Shown in pieces: positions 57,828 to 63,619 of a stretch of DNA of 64,000 nt (position 1 is the first letter of the stretch; each line of letters opens with the position of its first letter). Under the pieces are notes generated by a model. It made no database searches. It was not told where the DNA came from and was given only the letters and a program-made list of their open reading frames with translations. The stretch is from contig NZ_CP073104.1 of NCBI RefSeq assembly GCF_018138145.1, positions 2,232,001 to 2,296,000 of the forward strand, given 5' to 3'. This DNA comes from Pseudomonas sp. SCA2728.1_7 (lineage in GTDB: Bacteria; Pseudomonadota; Gammaproteobacteria; Pseudomonadales; Pseudomonadaceae). The position numbers and the translations under genes are program-made.

Positions 57828-59015
57828 ATGACCACCACCACTCACGCAATGACCCGAGGCATGGTGCTGCTGTTCGCCTTCTGCTGCGGCGCCATCGTTG
57901 CCAACATCTACTACGCACAGCCGATCATCGGCCTGATCGCGCCGGACATCGGTCTCTCCGACACCATGGCCAGTTTCATCGTCTCGCTGACGCAGATCGG
58001 TTATGCGCTGGGCCTGTTCTTCCTCGTGCCGCTGGGCGATCTGCTGGAAAACCGCCGACTGATGATCATCACCACCGTGGTGGCGATTGCCAGCCTGTTG
58101 GCGGCGGCGTTTACCGATCAGCCCAATGTGTTCCTGCTGATTTCGTTGCTGGTGGGCTTCAGTTCGGTATCGGTGCAGATCCTGATTCCACTGGCCGCGC
58201 ATCTGGCGCCGGAAGAGTCTCGCGGTCGTGTGGTCGGCGGGATCATGGGCGGTTTATTGCTGGGTATTCTGTTGGCCCGACCGGTGTCGAGCGTGGTCGC
58301 TGACCATCTCGGCTGGCGCGCGATGTTCATGATTGCCGCCGCACTGATGGCGGCGATCAGCGTTGTGCTGGCGCTGACCGTGCCCAAGCGGCAGCCTGAT
58401 CACAGCGCTACTTATGGCCAATTGATCGGCTCACTGTGGACATTGCTGCGCCAGCAACCGGTATTGCGTCAGCGGGCGTTCTATCAGGGCTGCATGTTCG
58501 CCACGTTCAGCCTGTTCTGGACGGCGGTGCCGCTGGAACTGGCGCGCAACCATGGTCTGTCGCAAAGCGAGATCGCCATCTTCGCCCTGGTCGGCGCCAT
58601 CGGCGCCATTGCCGCGCCGATCAGCGGACGCCTGGCCGACGCTGGCCACACTCGCATCGCTTCGTTGTTGGCCATGGTATTTGCCAGTCTGAGCTTCCTC
58701 CCCGCCTTCATCCACCCGGCCTACAGCGTCATCGGCCTGGCCGTGACCGGCGTGGTATTGGACTTCTGCGTGCAGATGAACATGGTCCTGGGCCAACGCG
58801 CGGTGTATTCGCTGGACGCGAAAAGCCGTGGCCGTTTGAACGCGCTGTACATGACCAGCATCTTTATCGGCGGCGCCTTCGGCTCATCGGTGGCCAGTGC
58901 GGTGTATGAGCATGGCGGCTGGTTGTGGATCGTGATTGTGGGGAGTGTGTTTCCGCTGTTGGCGTTGTTGCGGTTTTTGAGTGCTTCCCAGCGTGGTTCA
59001 TTGGCGACGGCATAA
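57828..59015 (+). CDS. MFS transporter (drug/metabolite efflux type)
   Basis: The ATG at 57828 gives 395 residues with 12 membrane helices. IYYAQPIIGLIAPDIGLS and LGLFFLVPLGDLLENRRLMI (loop 2-3 motif A) mark the major facilitator fold, and LAPEESRGRVVGGIMGGLL gives motif C-like glycines. Probably a proton-driven exporter; the substrate is unknown. The last gene with ordinary genome composition before the accessory island. Confidence 0.87.
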   Translation: MTTTTHAMTRGMVLLFAFCCGAIVANIYYAQPIIGLIAPDIGLSDTMASFIVSLTQIGYALGLFFLVPLGDLLENRRLMIITTVVAIASLLAAAFTDQPNVFLLISLLVGFSSVSVQILIPLAAHLAPEESRGRVVGGIMGGLLLGILLARPVSSVVADHLGWRAMFMIAAALMAAISVVLALTVPKRQPDHSATYGQLIGSLWTLLRQQPVLRQRAFYQGCMFATFSLFWTAVPLELARNHGLSQSEIAIFALVGAIGAIAAPISGRLADAGHTRIASLLAMVFASLSFLPAFIHPAYSVIGLAVTGVVLDFCVQMNMVLGQRAVYSLDAKSRGRLNALYMTSIFIGGAFGSSVASAVYEHGGWLWIVIVGSVFPLLALLRFLSASQRGSLATA

Positions 59016-59024
59016 GGCGCCAAA

Positions 59025-59053
59025 AGCTTCGCGAGCAGGCTCGCTCCCACAGG
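59025..59053. repeat. Single REP unit
   Basis: One GCGAGCAGGCTCGCTCCCAC unit without partner, just before the hicB stop; it marks the left edge of the accessory island. Confidence 0.7.
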
Positions 59054-59084
59054 TTATTCACTGAGCCTGGGGGAGCGAGGAAGC

Positions 59085-59489
59085 TTAATAACGAACCAGT
59101 TTCTCCATGGCCGCATCCGCCAGAAAGGAGGAGCGACTTTTAACGTTGTGTTCGCGCACATAACGATCGATTCGCTGAATCACATAACCGGGCAGCGTTA
59201 CGTTGACCTTTTCGGTTTTGCCGAGATAGGGCGAAATGTCCAGCTCAAGCATGCCCCAGCCCATCTCGGCAAAGTCCGGATTACTGCGATGAGCGGATGC
59301 CGAAGTCGGCATAGGAATCGACTCCCCGTCCGCCGCAATCTCCTGCAGCATGATGTGGGCGACTTCGACCGCCGCCTTGTAGGCATCTTCAAAGCTATCC
59401 CCTGCAGTAACGGCGCCGGGAATATCGGGGATCTGAATACCGATGGCGGTATTTTCGTCACCCCATTCGATGCAGATTGGATATTGCAT
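59085..59489 (-). CDS. hicB: HicB-type antitoxin
   Basis: 134 residues. The N-terminal partial RNase-H-like fold (IPDIPGAVTAGDSFEDAYKA) is the HicB toxin-binding domain. The C-terminus has a ribbon-helix-helix stretch, KVNVTLPGYVIQRIDRYV ... SRSSFLADAA, for operator binding. It neutralises HicA and probably represses the pair. The ATG overlaps the hicA stop by one base. Toxin-first order is usual for hicAB. Confidence 0.93.
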   Translation of the reverse strand: MQYPICIEWGDENTAIGIQIPDIPGAVTAGDSFEDAYKAAVEVAHIMLQEIAADGESIPMPTSASAHRSNPDFAEMGWGMLELDISPYLGKTEKVNVTLPGYVIQRIDRYVREHNVKSRSSFLADAAMEKLVRY

Positions 59490-59701
59490 TACGGATCTCC
59501 TTCATAACTGGCTGGCGGGTTGTACAGCCCGGCACGCCTCCTGATGCTTTTGACCGTCCCCAACGGCAAATCCTTTTTCGGATGAGGAACGGGAATCGTG
59601 TAAGGGTTGTAACGGTGCCTGAAAATGTGATGACTGCCGGTGACCCGATCCAACGTCCAGCCTGCCTCCTCCAGCTCCTTGATCAATTGCCTGCTCTGCA
59701 C
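59489..59701 (-). CDS. hicA: HicA-type mRNA interferase toxin
   Basis: I choose the GTG at 59701, six bases after AGGAGG, giving MQSRQLIKELEEAGWTL (70 residues); a TTG one codon earlier is too close to the site. The dsRBD-like fold has the catalytic His in VTGSHHIFRH and the PVPHPKKDLPLGTVKSI strand-helix. It cuts mRNA when HicB is lost. All key residues are intact. Confidence 0.92.
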   Translation of the reverse strand: MQSRQLIKELEEAGWTLDRVTGSHHIFRHRYNPYTIPVPHPKKDLPLGTVKSIRRRAGLYNPPASYEGDP

Positions 59702-59728
59702 CAACCGCCTCCTTGCCTGGGCCTCATA

Positions 59729-59757
59729 AAAATAACTCTAGAGTTACCTTTACTCAA
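59729..59757 (-). promoter_or_regulatory. hicAB promoter with an operator palindrome in its spacer
   Basis: On the minus strand TTGAGT (59757-59752) and TATTTT (59734-59729) are 17 bp apart. TAACTCTAGAGTTA, a perfect 14-bp palindrome at 59733-59746, fills most of the spacer. This is where a HicB dimer would block RNA polymerase. Confidence 0.6.
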
Positions 59758-59865
59758 GCACAGAAATTCTGGAAGCGACGCCCGGTTGTTTTACAGAGTG
59801 TGATTGATTGCATCGCAACCGGACCCAATCACACTCAGCGGCTCAGATCCAGAGCCCTGAACAAT

Positions 59866-59986
59866 AGAAGACCAGAAGAGATTGCTATGGCAATGGCGGT
59901 TTCTACCTTCAGAACAGGGTGGCTTCATCACCGGGCAGACATTGTTCGTCGATGGCGGCGCCTCGGTCGGTAAAGCCTCGTTTTAA
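59866..59986 (+). pseudogene. C-terminal remnant of a short-chain dehydrogenase/reductase
   Basis: RRPEEIAMAMAVS (59866-59904) in one frame is continued by FLPSEQGGFITGQTLFVDGG and ASVGKASF-stop (59900-59986) in another. Together they are the typical SDR tail, PEEIA...FLxSxxxxFITGQTLxVDGG. A small deletion near 59900 breaks the frame, and the first 200 or so residues are missing. It is the remains of a gene lost from this place. Within the 507-bp gene-free gap 59702-60208. Confidence 0.82.
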
Positions 59987-60134
59987 TCAACAACACGACT
60001 CCCCTGTAGGGGTGGACGCTGCCGGATCAGGGTTTGTGGGCGGTGTTTCCGACGGGGCGGATGGCGAGTGCCAAGGCAAGGGCGATTGTTGAGTGTGTCA
60101 CGGGCTTCTAGTGAGCAACCATTGACGCGTAACG

Positions 60135-60166
60135 TTTCGTTTATTGCGATTTTCGTTTAATTCGAA
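60135..60166. promoter_or_regulatory. 16-bp-period direct repeat before the antitoxin-like gene
   Basis: TTTCGTTTATTGCGAT is followed at once by TTTCGTTTAATTCGAA. The two share TTTCGTTTA and the final CGA. They lie about 45 bp before the gene at 60209, within its likely promoter, and look like autoregulatory sites. Confidence 0.4.
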
Positions 60167-60208
60167 TAACGTCCCGACATTGTCTTTTCAGAAAGCTGGA
60201 AAACCATC

Positions 60209-60658
60209 ATGTCGATTGTTATTCATCCGCCGGTCACCCTCCCCGTAGAGTGCGAGATCAAAGCCGCCATCGAGGGCCAGCGTGCCTTGGCCGCTTACCT
60301 CGCTACCCAATTCGAAACCCAGCACATACAGATCTTCGATGAGCAGAACGAAGCTCATCGTGTCGAGTTGCCAACGTCGGCCCTGCGCCTGCTTGCTGAC
60401 ATTCTTGCAGCGCTGGCAGAGGGCAACGCCGTTAAAGTCGTGCCAGTACACGCCGAACTGACCACCCAGGAAGCCGCTGATCTGCTCAATGTCTCACGCC
60501 CGCACATGATTAAACTGCTGGAAAGTGGCGAGATTTCCTACCACAAAACCGGCAAGCACCGACGTGTGCGCTTTGCCGATCTGATGGATTATAAGACCCG
60601 GCGTGACAGCGCCAGCGAGCAGGCAATGATGCTTCTCGCAGAGCAGGCACAGCGTTAA
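60209..60658 (+). CDS. Excisionase-family DNA-binding protein, antitoxin of a PIN-type pair
   Basis: 149 residues. The N-terminal half (IEGQRALAAYLATQFETQHI ... PTSALRLLADIL) is the part that I know from antitoxins encoded before PIN-domain toxins. The C-terminal half is a MerR-like excisionase HTH: LTTQEAADLLNVSRPHMIKL, then GKHRRVRFADLMDY. The protein looks complete, but the toxin that should follow is not there: only a 22-codon remnant remains before the kinase gene. Confidence 0.83.
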   Translation: MSIVIHPPVTLPVECEIKAAIEGQRALAAYLATQFETQHIQIFDEQNEAHRVELPTSALRLLADILAALAEGNAVKVVPVHAELTTQEAADLLNVSRPHMIKLLESGEISYHKTGKHRRVRFADLMDYKTRRDSASEQAMMLLAEQAQR

Positions 60659-60671
60659 GGACAGGTTACGA

Positions 60672-60740
60672 GTGAGGCATTCCTATTTCACGGCTGTAAA
60701 GATGCCAAATTTTGTTTACTGCCCCATTGAGATTTTTTAG
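60672..60740 (+). pseudogene. Truncated N-terminus of a PIN-type toxin gene
   Basis: From a GTG 13 bp after the antitoxin stop, the frame reads VRHSYFTAVKMPNFVYCP then IEIF-stop. The first nine residues, RHSxFTAV, look like the start of the PIN toxins that pair with this antitoxin family (I recall RHSPFTAVYDACVLYP). After FTAV at 60698 the DNA turns AT-rich and the similarity ends. The match is short and from memory, hence low confidence. Confidence 0.4.
60731..60740 (+). repeat. Left copy of direct repeat GATTTTTTAG
   Basis: Identical 10-mer to 61932-61941, here followed by TGAAC. The two copies enclose the kinase gene. Confidence 0.4.
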
Positions 60741-60781
60741 TGAACTCCCGTACTCTCGACGAATAGGTAAAGGAGATTCTT

Positions 60782-61903
60782 ATGTCCGCGAGACCGATCG
60801 AGTTCCCGAAAAGCAAAGCTTATATACTTGAGAAAGATCTTGGCCAAGGAGCATGCGGCAGAACAGTTTTAGTTTTCGACCCCGAGATCAACGAACACTT
60901 CGTCTGCAAGAAATACTCTCCGATCTACGAAGGATTGAAAGAAGAACTATTTTCAAACTTCATTCGCGAAATAAAACTTCTATACCTACTAAATCACCCA
61001 AACATTGTTCGCGTATTCAATTATCACCTATACAACGAAAAACATTTAGGCTACATCTTTATGGAGTACATCATTGGCACCCATATAGATGACTACTTGA
61101 AGCAGCATCCAGAAAGTGCCAATGAAATATTCCGCCAAGTAATTGATGGATTCTCACATCTAGAAGAAAGAAAAATCCTACACCGTGATATCCGCCCATT
61201 CAATCTTATGGTGGACGAAAACGGCACAGTAAAAATCATAGACTTTGGATTTGGTAAACAAACAGCAGATATAGCTGCATTTGATAAAAGCATCTCTTTA
61301 AACTGGTGGTGCGAACCCCCAACAGATTTCGAAAACGATACTTACAACTACGGCACGGAGATCTATTTTGTTGGAAAAATGTTCGAGAAAATACTGACCG
61401 ATAACAACATCCAACAATTTTCTCACCCCTTATTAATAAAAGCGATGTGCAACAGATCTCCCACCAACCGACCTACATCATTCATCGGGATTAGAAAAGA
61501 ACTTTTAACAGAAAAGTTTTCAACCATCGAATTCAACACGAGAGAACGAACCGTATACAAAAACTTTTCAAACGGCCTATTCCTTGCCCTATCAAAAGTT
61601 GAGAAGAACGCTAAATACTACGACATCGATACTATACAATCTAAACTAGAGGATTGTTACAAAAAAGTCATGCTAGAGGACTTCATCCCGAAAAATAATT
61701 TATTAACAAACTGCATAATCGACGGATCACACTTTTACAAAACAACAAATGCATTCAAAGTTTCAACCCTAAAAAACTTCATAGACATACTAAAATCATG
61801 CAACAAGGAAAAGAAAAACATAATAATCAGCAACCTTCAAAGCAAAGTAGATGCCATTCTTCGCTACGAAGACACACCATTCAGTGACGACATACCCTTT
61901 TGA
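60782..61903 (+). CDS. Eukaryotic-like serine/threonine protein kinase, AT-rich
   Basis: 373 residues. The kinase domain spans about 15-235: glycine loop LGQGACGRTVL (Gly21, Gly23, Gly26), ATP Lys at 43/44 in FVCKKY, helix-C Glu63, catalytic loop LHRDIRPFN (Asp136, Asn141; Arg138 where Lys is usual), and DFG at 154-156. NRPT near 230 closes the lobe. The C-terminal 130 residues match nothing I know and have no membrane helix. AAAGGAG lies 6 bp before the ATG. Two sampled 60-base lines hold 23 and 22 G+C, far below the neighbours, so it was probably acquired. No phosphatase or PASTA domain. Confidence 0.87.
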   Translation: MSARPIEFPKSKAYILEKDLGQGACGRTVLVFDPEINEHFVCKKYSPIYEGLKEELFSNFIREIKLLYLLNHPNIVRVFNYHLYNEKHLGYIFMEYIIGTHIDDYLKQHPESANEIFRQVIDGFSHLEERKILHRDIRPFNLMVDENGTVKIIDFGFGKQTADIAAFDKSISLNWWCEPPTDFENDTYNYGTEIYFVGKMFEKILTDNNIQQFSHPLLIKAMCNRSPTNRPTSFIGIRKELLTEKFSTIEFNTRERTVYKNFSNGLFLALSKVEKNAKYYDIDTIQSKLEDCYKKVMLEDFIPKNNLLTNCIIDGSHFYKTTNAFKVSTLKNFIDILKSCNKEKKNIIISNLQSKVDAILRYEDTPFSDDIPF

Positions 61904-61931
61904 ACATTCGAAAAAACCAACTTATTCCGTT

Positions 61932-61941
61932 GATTTTTTAG
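61932..61941 (+). repeat. Right copy of direct repeat GATTTTTTAG
   Basis: Lies 28 bp after the kinase stop, followed by GAAC. See 60731-60740. Confidence 0.4.
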
Positions 61942-61956
61942 GAACCATATTATTAA

Positions 61957-61985
61957 AAACGGCGATCCAAAGATCGCCGTTTGCA
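61957..61985 (-). terminator. Rho-independent terminator after the lipoprotein gene
   Basis: AACGGCGATC / GATCGCCGTT ten-bp stem, with TTTTTAATA behind it on the minus strand. Also able to stop kinase transcripts, so it marks the right edge of the island. Confidence 0.85.
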
Positions 61986-61986
61986 T

Positions 61987-62391
61987 TCACTGCCCGAACT
62001 GCTTGCCCAATCCCGGTGGCACGCCGTGGATGTTGGTGTCTTCCCACGGGCCGTTCGGGCTGATGGAGCGGCTCCAGCCGTTGTTCCAGCGGTAGTAGGT
62101 GCGCTGGCGGTAGAAGGTGTTGGGCTGGTCGTCGAGGACGTAGACGCCGAGTTTCTGGTCCCAGTGGCTGTTGCCGCCCGGTGGCGGTGCGAAGCTGGCC
62201 GAGGTGCGCGGAACTGGTTTGGCTGGTTTCGCCGGGATGCTTTTTCCCGGTGTTGGTGAGGTCGATGGGGTCGGGCTTGGTTGCGACGGCGGGATCGGCG
62301 GCAGGTTGGTGGTCGGTTCCGGTCGTTGCACCGCACATGCACTCAAGCCCAGGGCCAGTGTGAGGACTGTGATTCGGGCGATGGTGTGCAT
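61987..62391 (-). CDS. Pro-rich lipoprotein of unknown function
   Basis: 134 residues with lipobox LSAC (Cys19). A Pro/Ser/Thr-rich linker (about 25-70) leads to a C-terminal aromatic domain: HWDQKLGVYVLDDQPNTFYR and YYRWNNGWSRSISPNGPWED. The W/Y-G-rich end resembles small cell-surface modules, but I cannot name the family. It follows ccmI on the same strand after 25 bp and is closed by a terminator, so it may be the last gene of a ccm transcript. Confidence 0.75.
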   Translation of the reverse strand: MHTIARITVLTLALGLSACAVQRPEPTTNLPPIPPSQPSPTPSTSPTPGKSIPAKPAKPVPRTSASFAPPPGGNSHWDQKLGVYVLDDQPNTFYRQRTYYRWNNGWSRSISPNGPWEDTNIHGVPPGLGKQFGQ

Positions 62392-62416
62392 GGCGGTGCT
62401 TTCCTGTTGTGTCCGG

Positions 62417-63619
62417 CTATTGGTCCGGGCTGTCGATGGTCAGTTTTTGTAGCGCAGTGGTGCTGCTGGCCAGAGGGCCGCTGCGACCGACCCACTCGCC
62501 GGCAGTCGGTTGGCCGGCGCGGGAGATGCGCGCAACCAGTTGGACTTCAGGGAAGTTCGACAGTTTCAACTGCGGCATCATTGCATCGGCATCGCCCAGT
62601 TCGACAGTCACTGGCAGATCGGCCACGGTCAGGCGCTTGGCTGCCAGCGGTGCCGGTGGGCCGGAGGTGGCGCGAGCGAAGATGAACACGCTGTCGCCCG
62701 GTTGCACTTTGCTTCTGAGTTCGCTGGCCAGATCGACGCTGACTTTCAACAGCGCGGCTTTCGCGGCTACCGGTGCCTGAGCGACTTTGCCGCCGCTGGC
62801 TTCCAGGCGTTCGGCGGCACGCTTGATCCCGCCTTGCAGTGCGGCGCGGGAGTTGTCCTCCGGCGGTAGTTGAGCGAGCAGACGGTTCCAGTAATCGATG
62901 GCTTCTTGATAACGCTCGCCTTCAAACGCAGCGATGCCGAGCAGACCGAGGCTGGTGACTTCTTTCGGATCCGCCTTCAGTGCTTCGTCGGTCAGCGTCT
63001 GAATCTTCGCCGACCACTTTTTGCCATCCGCAAAATACTGCGCCTGGGCCCACTGGCCGAGCAGTTCCGGCTGGCGACCGGCCAGATTGGCGGCGCGTTC
63101 GAACATCTTCGCCGCGTCCGCCGGACGCTCTTGCGCCATGTAGGTACGGCCGAGGAAATACAGGCCTTCGGCAGAATCCGGTTGCGCCGCGACGGCGCGT
63201 TCCAGACGTTGGGTCATTTCTTCCATCGACTGCGGCGCCTGGGCGAATTCGCGGGTCAGCTCGACCTTGTCGGCAGCACCGAAGTGCATATAGAGGCCCA
63301 GACCCAACACAGGCACCAACACCGCCGCCAGCAACGGCAACGGTTTACCCAGTTTCGAGATACGCGGCGCGGCAACACCTTCGGTATCGGCCAGCAACTC
63401 ACGCGCCGCCTCGGCACGACCGCTGTCCATTTGTGCAGCGTCGAGCACGCCTTCAGCCTGTTGCGCTTGCAACTCGGCGACACGCTCCTGATACAGCGCA
63501 ACGTTCAGGGCAGTACGATCCTCTTCACGCTGGGCGCGACGCTCACGCAACACCGGGATCAGCAGAAAACTCAGGGCGACCAGAAGCAACAGCCCTGCGG
63601 CAAGCCAGAAATCAATCAT
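62417..63619 (-). CDS. ccmI: Cytochrome c biogenesis protein CcmI
   Basis: The ATG at 63619 ([18 protein letters not shown]) gives 400 residues. Two membrane helices (4-24 and 97-118) flank a cytoplasmic loop with [16 protein letters not shown]. The periplasmic part has TPR repeats ([20 protein letters not shown] near 160) and a C-terminal beta domain. CcmI brings apocytochrome c to the haem ligation complex. It overlaps the end of ccmH by eight bases. Confidence 0.94.

What the first reader, a model, noticed from the sequence alone, without database searches (positions are those of the whole stretch)
60209..61903. Antitoxin kept, PIN toxin cut to a stub, protein kinase in its place
The protein at 60209-60658 looks like the antitoxin of a PIN-toxin pair. 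Thirteen bases after its stop a GTG frame starts VRHSYFTAV, like the start of that toxin family, but it ends after 22 codons and the DNA turns AT-rich. An intact kinase gene follows. This could be simple decay by insertion. It could also be a new pair in which the DNA-binding protein now controls or neutralises a kinase, which would be an undescribed toxin-antitoxin or defence arrangement.
Basis: partly seen in the sequence, partly recalled or inferred. Interest (0 to 1): 0.75.

Follow-up and report, generated by a model that had tools for sequence, protein, structure and literature searches.

The report
Decayed toxin gene replaced by kinase
In this Pseudomonas genome an old toxin-antitoxin pair has lost its toxin and a foreign protein-kinase gene sits in the toxin's place; it looks like a one-off landing of a mobile gene in a spot where the toxin is often lost, and not a new toxin-antitoxin pair, although the surviving DNA-binding protein may now control the kinase.

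Summary
60209-60658 is an HTH_17 antitoxin-type protein; its homologues usually precede a PIN_3 gene. The window keeps only the 5' end of that PIN gene: homology with relatives is firm from 60672 to 60732 and resumes at 61955, so about 1.2 kb of AT-rich DNA with an intact Ser/Thr kinase (60782-61903) stands where relatives have the toxin. Toxin loss with the antitoxin kept is common: 23 of 68 loci with a full-length antitoxin (22 if one late stop is forgiven). The kinase follows the antitoxin only here (1 of 86 genus loci, 0 of 29 class-level loci). None of the 7 other full-length kinase relatives, from several phyla, has the antitoxin within the fetched flanks; one abuts a type IIG restriction enzyme and one lies near Lamassu genes. 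So a neutralising antitoxin-kinase pair is not supported; arrival of a mobile, possibly defensive kinase in a decaying TA slot is. Part of the bolder idea survives: a 34-bp operator-like block before the antitoxin is conserved in 28 of the 29 closest other loci, intact here and unique in the genome, and no promoter or terminator is predicted in the 123-nt gap. The kinase may therefore be transcribed under the antitoxin's control.

The parts
60135..60168 (+). Operator-like repeat block TTTCG(N)TTATTGCGANTTTCG..TTCGAATA upstream of the antitoxin; probable autoregulatory site
   Evidence: Pattern present in 29 of 30 close loci, window included; L020 lacks part of it. Related TTTCGNWTA-type repeats upstream of many distant homologues (by eye). 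1 site in the whole genome at up to 3 mismatches, control 0. Binding itself not shown.
60209..60658 (+). Antitoxin-type HTH_17/excisionase-like DNA-binding protein, 149 aa, C-terminal tail shortened
   Evidence: PF12728 E 3.9e-13, TIGR01764 E 4e-16; homologues followed by a PIN_3 gene
60648..60656 (+). Site of the missing base (about 60651) that brings in an early stop and removes the overlap with the PIN start
   Evidence: Alignments with 8 relatives
60672..60732 (+). Remnant of the 5' end of the PIN_3 toxin gene (about 20 codons, with small indels)
   Evidence: 0 of 1000 shuffles
60733..60781 (+). Junction zone and ribosome-binding site of the kinase; possible further PIN-derived sequence
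   Evidence: suggestive only
60731..60740 (+). Left copy of direct repeat GATTTTTTAG
60782..61903 (+). Ser/Thr protein kinase (Pkinase domain residues 15-210) with a conserved C-terminal region of about 130 aa that matches no Pfam family above cut-off
   Evidence: PF00069 E 2.7e-31; glycine loop, Lys, Glu, HRD, the Asn after it and the Asp and Gly of DFG invariant in 6 aligned relatives; C-terminal region:
61932..61941 (+). Right copy of direct repeat GATTTTTTAG
61955..61985 (+). Right junction; homology with relatives resumes at a perfect 11-bp hairpin (arms 61957-61967 and 61972-61982) that in relatives follows the PIN gene

Best explanation
The locus was a type II toxin-antitoxin pair (HTH_17 antitoxin, then PIN_3 toxin with overlapping start) next to the ccm cytochrome-c biogenesis genes. 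In this lineage the toxin was destroyed and a horizontally acquired, AT-rich gene for a solitary Ser/Thr kinase landed in its place, between the PIN 5' end and the old terminator (shown by comparison). The kinase belongs to a rare, patchily spread family whose members mostly stand alone, some of them beside restriction or Lamassu genes; the most likely role is anti-phage defence or a similar conflict function in which the kinase phosphorylates host or phage targets (inferred). The antitoxin gene and its operator-like repeats are kept. The kinase reading frame follows in the same direction without a predicted terminator or promoter between, so it is probably transcribed from the antitoxin's autoregulated promoter (inferred). 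The antitoxin most likely does not neutralise the kinase protein (inferred).
For: The same syntenic place in relatives holds antitoxin, full PIN and the ccmI-side genes: ccmI-side genes lie downstream in 25 of the 30 closest loci and are not found within about 4 kb in the other 5. Left and right homology limits 60732 and 61955. The L005 toxin matches PIN_3 PF13470, E 2.2e-7, over cut-off. PIN broken or absent in 23 of 68 loci with a full-length antitoxin, by different lesions. A second locus, L107, has up to about 1.65 kb of AT-rich DNA with an HNH-like gene in the PIN slot. G+C 0.379 in the kinase against 0.582 for the window. Kinase relatives: 56% Pyrinomonadaceae, 49% another genome of the genus, 48% Cloacimonadota, 47% Sorangium, 42% Planctomyces, Scalindua in two pieces of 59% and 42%, 38% on a viral contig. 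Defence genes beside L062 (type IIG, 25 bp away) and L133 (LmuA and LmuB, E 1.4e-117 and 1.6e-201, the nearer 2.6 kb away). Catalytic motifs invariant. Operator-like block. No + strand terminator and no promoter match in the gap.
Against: Only 2 of 7 kinase relatives have strong defence neighbours. L065 has an HNH gene 640 bp away with weak model hits, L063 a CoiA_N-domain ORF just over cut-off; L061 and L064 have nothing telling. PADLOC's PD-T4-6 label is unspecific: in S. [quoted passage not shown] The promoter and terminator scan has low power (2 promoter-like sites found in the region, 3.5 expected by chance). Strain-level data for this species were not available, so the age and fixation of the insertion are unknown.
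Confidence: 0.72

Rival explanations
1. New toxin-antitoxin pair: the kinase is toxic and the HTH protein binds and neutralises it, having swapped partners from PIN to kinase.
For: Gene order antitoxin-then-effector and same strand. The antitoxin differs from that of L002, whose PIN is also broken, by 7 synonymous and 3 non-synonymous changes, P 0.0026 without constraint.
Against: Unique in 86 + 29 antitoxin loci; 7 of 7 kinase relatives have no such antitoxin in the fetched flanks; the antitoxin has lost its C-terminal tail, the part next to the toxin start; the antitoxin is kept with a broken or absent PIN in 22 other loci, so retention needs no kinase.
Confidence: 0.05
2. Pure decay: both genes are passengers; the kinase is not expressed, or drives itself, and the antitoxin is on its way out or kept only to counter related toxins from elsewhere (anti-addiction).
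For: One-base loss in the antitoxin tail; frequent toxin loss; toxin loss with antitoxin retention and an anti-addiction reading are described for Xanthomonas (PMC4861877, abstract and passages); the antitoxin family occurs on 268 plasmid records, with an annotated PIN gene behind it in 1 of 2 looked at.
Against: Kinase frame fully open with all catalytic residues and the conserved C-terminus; operator-like block intact.
Confidence: 0.23
3. The stub resemblance is chance and the kinase landed in unrelated DNA.
For: The stub is short and its middle part is diverged.
Against: Synteny, continuous alignment through the PIN start, exact 12-mer in place, 0 of 1000 shuffles.
Confidence: 0.01

Closest known systems
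HTH_17 (excisionase-like) antitoxin with PIN_3 toxin, type II toxin-antitoxin pair (VapBC-like toxin)
   Same: Antitoxin family, gene order, operator-like repeats; a few toxin codons remain
   Different: Toxin gene destroyed; foreign kinase in its slot; antitoxin tail shortened
Toxin loss with antitoxin retention (Xanthomonas, PMC4861877, abstract and passages)
   Same: Antitoxin kept, toxin gene lost repeatedly
   Different: The passages read mention no foreign effector in the slot; here a kinase (and in L107 an HNH-like gene) fills it
PD-T4-6 and other Ser/Thr kinase defence genes (PADLOC models); MAD6 kinase of MADS
   Same: Kinase domain (best PADLOC models mad6 E 1.7e-30, PD-T4-6 E 5.6e-28)
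   Different: Matches lie in the kinase part (residues 12-227 for PD-T4-6); the C-terminal region is not covered, and the whole-protein MAD6 cut-off is not reached
HipBA (HTH antitoxin plus HipA kinase toxin; recalled, and seen in one search listing, PMC8262856)
   Same: DNA-binding protein gene before a kinase gene
   Different: No HipA domain for this kinase in Pfam; antitoxin is HTH_17; pairing not recurrent
CapK-CapS (PMC13373217, abstract and passages)
   Same: Kinase next to a DNA-binding regulator near immune genes
   Different: CapK is a GHKL kinase and CapS a STAS-wHTH protein; here a eukaryotic-type Ser/Thr kinase and an HTH_17 protein

Membership tests
HTH_17/PIN_3 type II toxin-antitoxin pair | HTH_17 antitoxin gene | tested here: met
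   PF12728 E 3.9e-13, over cut-off
HTH_17/PIN_3 type II toxin-antitoxin pair | Intact PIN_3 toxin gene directly downstream | tested here: not met
   Only about 60 nt remain; no PIN match by tblastn anywhere in the window at E up to 1
HTH_17/PIN_3 type II toxin-antitoxin pair | Antitoxin neutralises toxin and represses its own operon | not testable with these tools
   Conserved operator-like block only
HipBA | HipA-type kinase | tested here: not met
   Pfam gives Pkinase PF00069 and no HipA family at E up to 0.1
PD-T4-6 defence kinase | Match over the whole protein and anti-phage effect | tested here: inconclusive
MADS (MAD6) | Whole MAD6 protein over the curated cut-off | tested here: not met
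   NF047741 75.3 bits against a cut-off of 460
Kinase family defined here (window, L061-L066, L133) | Pkinase domain plus collinear C-terminal region ending in PF (DDIPF-like) | tested here: met
   Alignment A1 of 6; full-length match L133 and the two pieces of L065

The most novel reading that the evidence does not exclude
Regulatory capture: a mobile kinase has taken the toxin's place in a toxin-antitoxin operon and is now held down by the former antitoxin through its own operator, so that loss or displacement of the antitoxin switches the kinase on. More widely, PIN slots behind this antitoxin would serve as ready-made, regulated landing sites for foreign genes (kinase here; an HNH-like gene, though on the opposite strand, in L107).
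Probability: 0.3. Interest if true: 0.55.

Novelty: new variant of a known kind. Interest (0 to 1): 0.36.

Why it matters
It is a clear comparative case in which the toxin half of a TA pair is gone and an unrelated, possibly defensive kinase occupies the slot, while the DNA-binding half and its operator-like block stay. If the kinase is read from that promoter, TA loci can act as regulated docking places for new effectors, which would help to explain how orphan antitoxins are kept. The small kinase family with an unassigned C-terminal region is itself a testable defence candidate.

Tried and rejected
Integron cassette origin of the insert: no attC-like site or half site at the window; half sites GTTAGGT and ACCTAAC flank L065, and GTTAGGT precedes L066; none at the other five relatives. 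The integron integrase family is over its cut-off in 0 of 2 genomes searched (G000, G112). Target-site duplication: the 10-bp direct repeat GATTTTTTAG (60731-60740, 61932-61941) brackets the kinase. A 15-mer built on it matches twice in the window at up to 2 mismatches, and 1 of 100 shuffles reached two; no shared 9-mer lies within 180 nt on both sides in 7 of 7 relatives, so I do not take it as proof. PIN homology up to the kinase start codon (60778): not significant for 7 of 8 relatives. Rfam: no match in 59000-63000 at gathering scores. C-terminal region of the kinase: no convincing solved-structure or Pfam match. Structure prediction never ran because the queue was full. The PIN dN/dS figures printed are in a wrong frame and are not used; one search repeats them in frame. 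The synteny split printed (14 of 29 and 9 of 39) counted weak matches; one search recounts it with a strict rule (14 of 27 and 9 of 41), and that is used. A kinase profile search of 369 class-level genomes at E 1e-60 found only the window's own gene.

Full report
WHAT IS THERE. The window lies in a 6.78-Mb single-contig genome at C1:2232001-2296000. The ORFs are exactly as described: antitoxin-like protein 60209-60658, GTG stub at 60672, kinase 60782-61903. The protein has an HTH_17/excisionase-type domain. The kinase has a Pkinase domain over residues 15-210.

THE STUB IS REAL. Of 398 genomes of the genus, this one included, 84 carry the antitoxin at E 0.001 or better. I took all 86 loci of these 84 genomes (30; 56; re-fetched 10 of the 30 with longer flanks). 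In the closest 30 loci the antitoxin is 84-100% identical, the window's own included, and 27 of 30 carry the same PIN gene start behind it. A full PIN gene beginning VRHSSFTAVYDACVLYPAPLRDFLM, or close to it, overlaps the antitoxin's end in many (the output was cut); the L005 copy matches PIN_3 over its cut-off. The ccmI-side genes of the window follow in 25 of these 30 loci. Against such loci the window is homologous up to 60732 and again from 61955. About 1.2 kb of AT-rich DNA replaces about 530-540 bp of PIN gene and spacer.

TOXIN LOSS IS COMMON, THE KINASE IS NOT. Of the 86 loci, 68 have a full-length antitoxin (at least 125 aligned residues, no stop) and 18 only part. Of the 68, the PIN gene is intact by my rule in 45 and broken or absent in 23, the window among the 23: 14 of 27 loci with ccm synteny, 9 of 41 without. 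One of the 23 (L008) only has a stop seven residues before the end, which makes it 22 if forgiven. Lesions differ: internal deletions, stubs of 19 to 33 codons, point stops, frameshifts. The full-length kinase lies at the antitoxin only in the window (1 of 86; sequence downstream about 1.5 kb for 21 loci and at least 3.5 kb for 65). In a class-level sample, 32 of 369 genomes, the window's included, have the antitoxin at E 1e-20; 29 loci of others were given, of which 23 have a PIN match behind it, some of them partial, and 0 the kinase. Of 268 plasmid records with the antitoxin I looked at 2: one is followed by a gene annotated as PIN, one by IS21 genes. One other genus locus, L107, repeats the pattern with other cargo: homology stops about 35-42 nt after the antitoxin match, up to about 1.65 kb of mostly 41-43% G+C DNA with an HNH-like gene on the opposite strand follows, and homology resumes (HNH match below cut-off and weak defence-model matches).

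THE KINASE FAMILY. Full-length relatives, with the C-terminal region conserved as well, are rare. There is 1 in 397 other genus genomes (L032/L066, 49%; the next best match is E 1.7e-19 and covers residues 13-233). There are 5 loci in one scan of the genome-contig collection (L061-L065; that scan starts from short exact peptide patterns and misses distant ones) and 1 viral contig (L133, 38%). There is none beyond the window in 369 class-level genomes at E 1e-60. 0 of 36 matching phage records cover 80% of the query; 5 of 282 matching plasmid records do, at 20-23% identity. Neighbours: L062, a type IIG restriction-modification gene 25 bp upstream; L133, LmuA and LmuB ending 4.3 and 2.6 kb upstream; L065, an HNH gene 640 bp downstream with weak hits, attC-like half sites, and a kinase split in two with a transposase-like ORF between the pieces (label from the sequence, not searched); L066, a protein with a sub-threshold DUF4145 match directly downstream; L063, a CoiA_N-domain ORF about 270 bp downstream; L061 between selD-like and egtB-like genes (names recalled, not searched); L064 nothing telling. 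None of the 7 has the antitoxin or PIN within the fetched flanks. Catalytic motifs are invariant in the 6 aligned proteins. I infer a mobile, solitary, probably defence-related kinase; this is the weakest inferred step.

WHY CONTROL BY THE ANTITOXIN STAYS OPEN. A block TTTCGNTTATTGCGANTTTCG..TTCGAATA ends about 40 nt before the antitoxin start in the window and is found in 28 of the 29 closest other loci; the exception, L020, has lost part of it and also its PIN gene. Repeats of the same kind precede many distant homologues, judged by eye. The window's copy is the only one in its genome at up to 3 mismatches. The scan shows no + strand terminator and no promoter-like site between 60659 and 60781 (low power). 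Antitoxin divergence from L002, whose PIN is also frameshifted, is 7 synonymous to 3 non-synonymous changes, P 0.0026 without constraint; whether toxin loss preceded that split is not known, and the PIN of L002 itself looks constrained until recently (29.5 synonymous to 12.5 non-synonymous changes against L005).

PRINT. Toxin loss with antitoxin retention is described for Xanthomonas, with an anti-addiction reading (PMC4861877: abstract and passages seen). PIN_3 toxins in Tn3 transposons pair with RHH_6 antitoxins (PMC7157771: passages), and PIN_3 is listed under VapBC in P. syringae (PMC8790059: one passage). CapK-CapS is a kinase and repressor pair of other families (PMC13373217: abstract, outline and passages). 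PD-T4-6 as a label: PMC11514479, passages. PMC8262856 and PMC11341870 (HipA families; KKP kinases) were seen only in a search listing. The searches listed no paper that, by title and start of abstract, is about an HTH_17/PIN_3 pair with its toxin replaced by a kinase; the library lacks most subscription journals.

VERDICT. Real, correctly spotted, mostly ordinary: decay of a toxin gene and a foreign kinase in its slot. The new-pair reading is unlikely; regulatory capture is possible and cheap to test.

Noticed in passing
L002 1925-2060, L014 and L021 same region (oriented with the antitoxin on +): Nearly the same 17-18-nt stretch CCTCGCCAAT(A/G)AA(A/G)AGC replaces five or six bases after about PIN codon 8 and shifts the frame, in two backgrounds only 75% identical over the PIN gene (L002 against L014); L014 is 98% identical there to L006, which lacks it. 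No second exact copy in G198, G252 or G084. It looks like a recurrent, sequence-specific lesion and has no explanation yet.
   Followed up: partly
L107 (G157), from about 35 nt after the antitoxin match: Second case of foreign AT-rich DNA in the PIN slot, with an HNH-like gene on the opposite strand.
   Followed up: partly
59085-59704: HicB/HicA toxin-antitoxin pair on the minus strand about 0.5 kb upstream; also beside the antitoxin in L002 and several other loci, not found within the fetched flanks of the rest.
   Followed up: no
59921-59986: Remnant reading GFITGQTLFVDGGASVGKASF, like the end of a short-chain dehydrogenase (label recalled, not searched); in L003 and L005 the matching DNA lies about 0.9 kb further upstream.
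   Followed up: no
L065 2070-4702: Kinase relative split in two pieces with a transposase-like ORF between, and attC-like half sites outside; possibly an integron cassette hit by an insertion element.
   Followed up: partly
L180 (CP098928.1), downstream of the antitoxin: E. coli plasmid on which IS21-family genes follow the antitoxin about 0.6 kb on and no PIN gene is listed; the gene table of that collection is incomplete.
   Followed up: no
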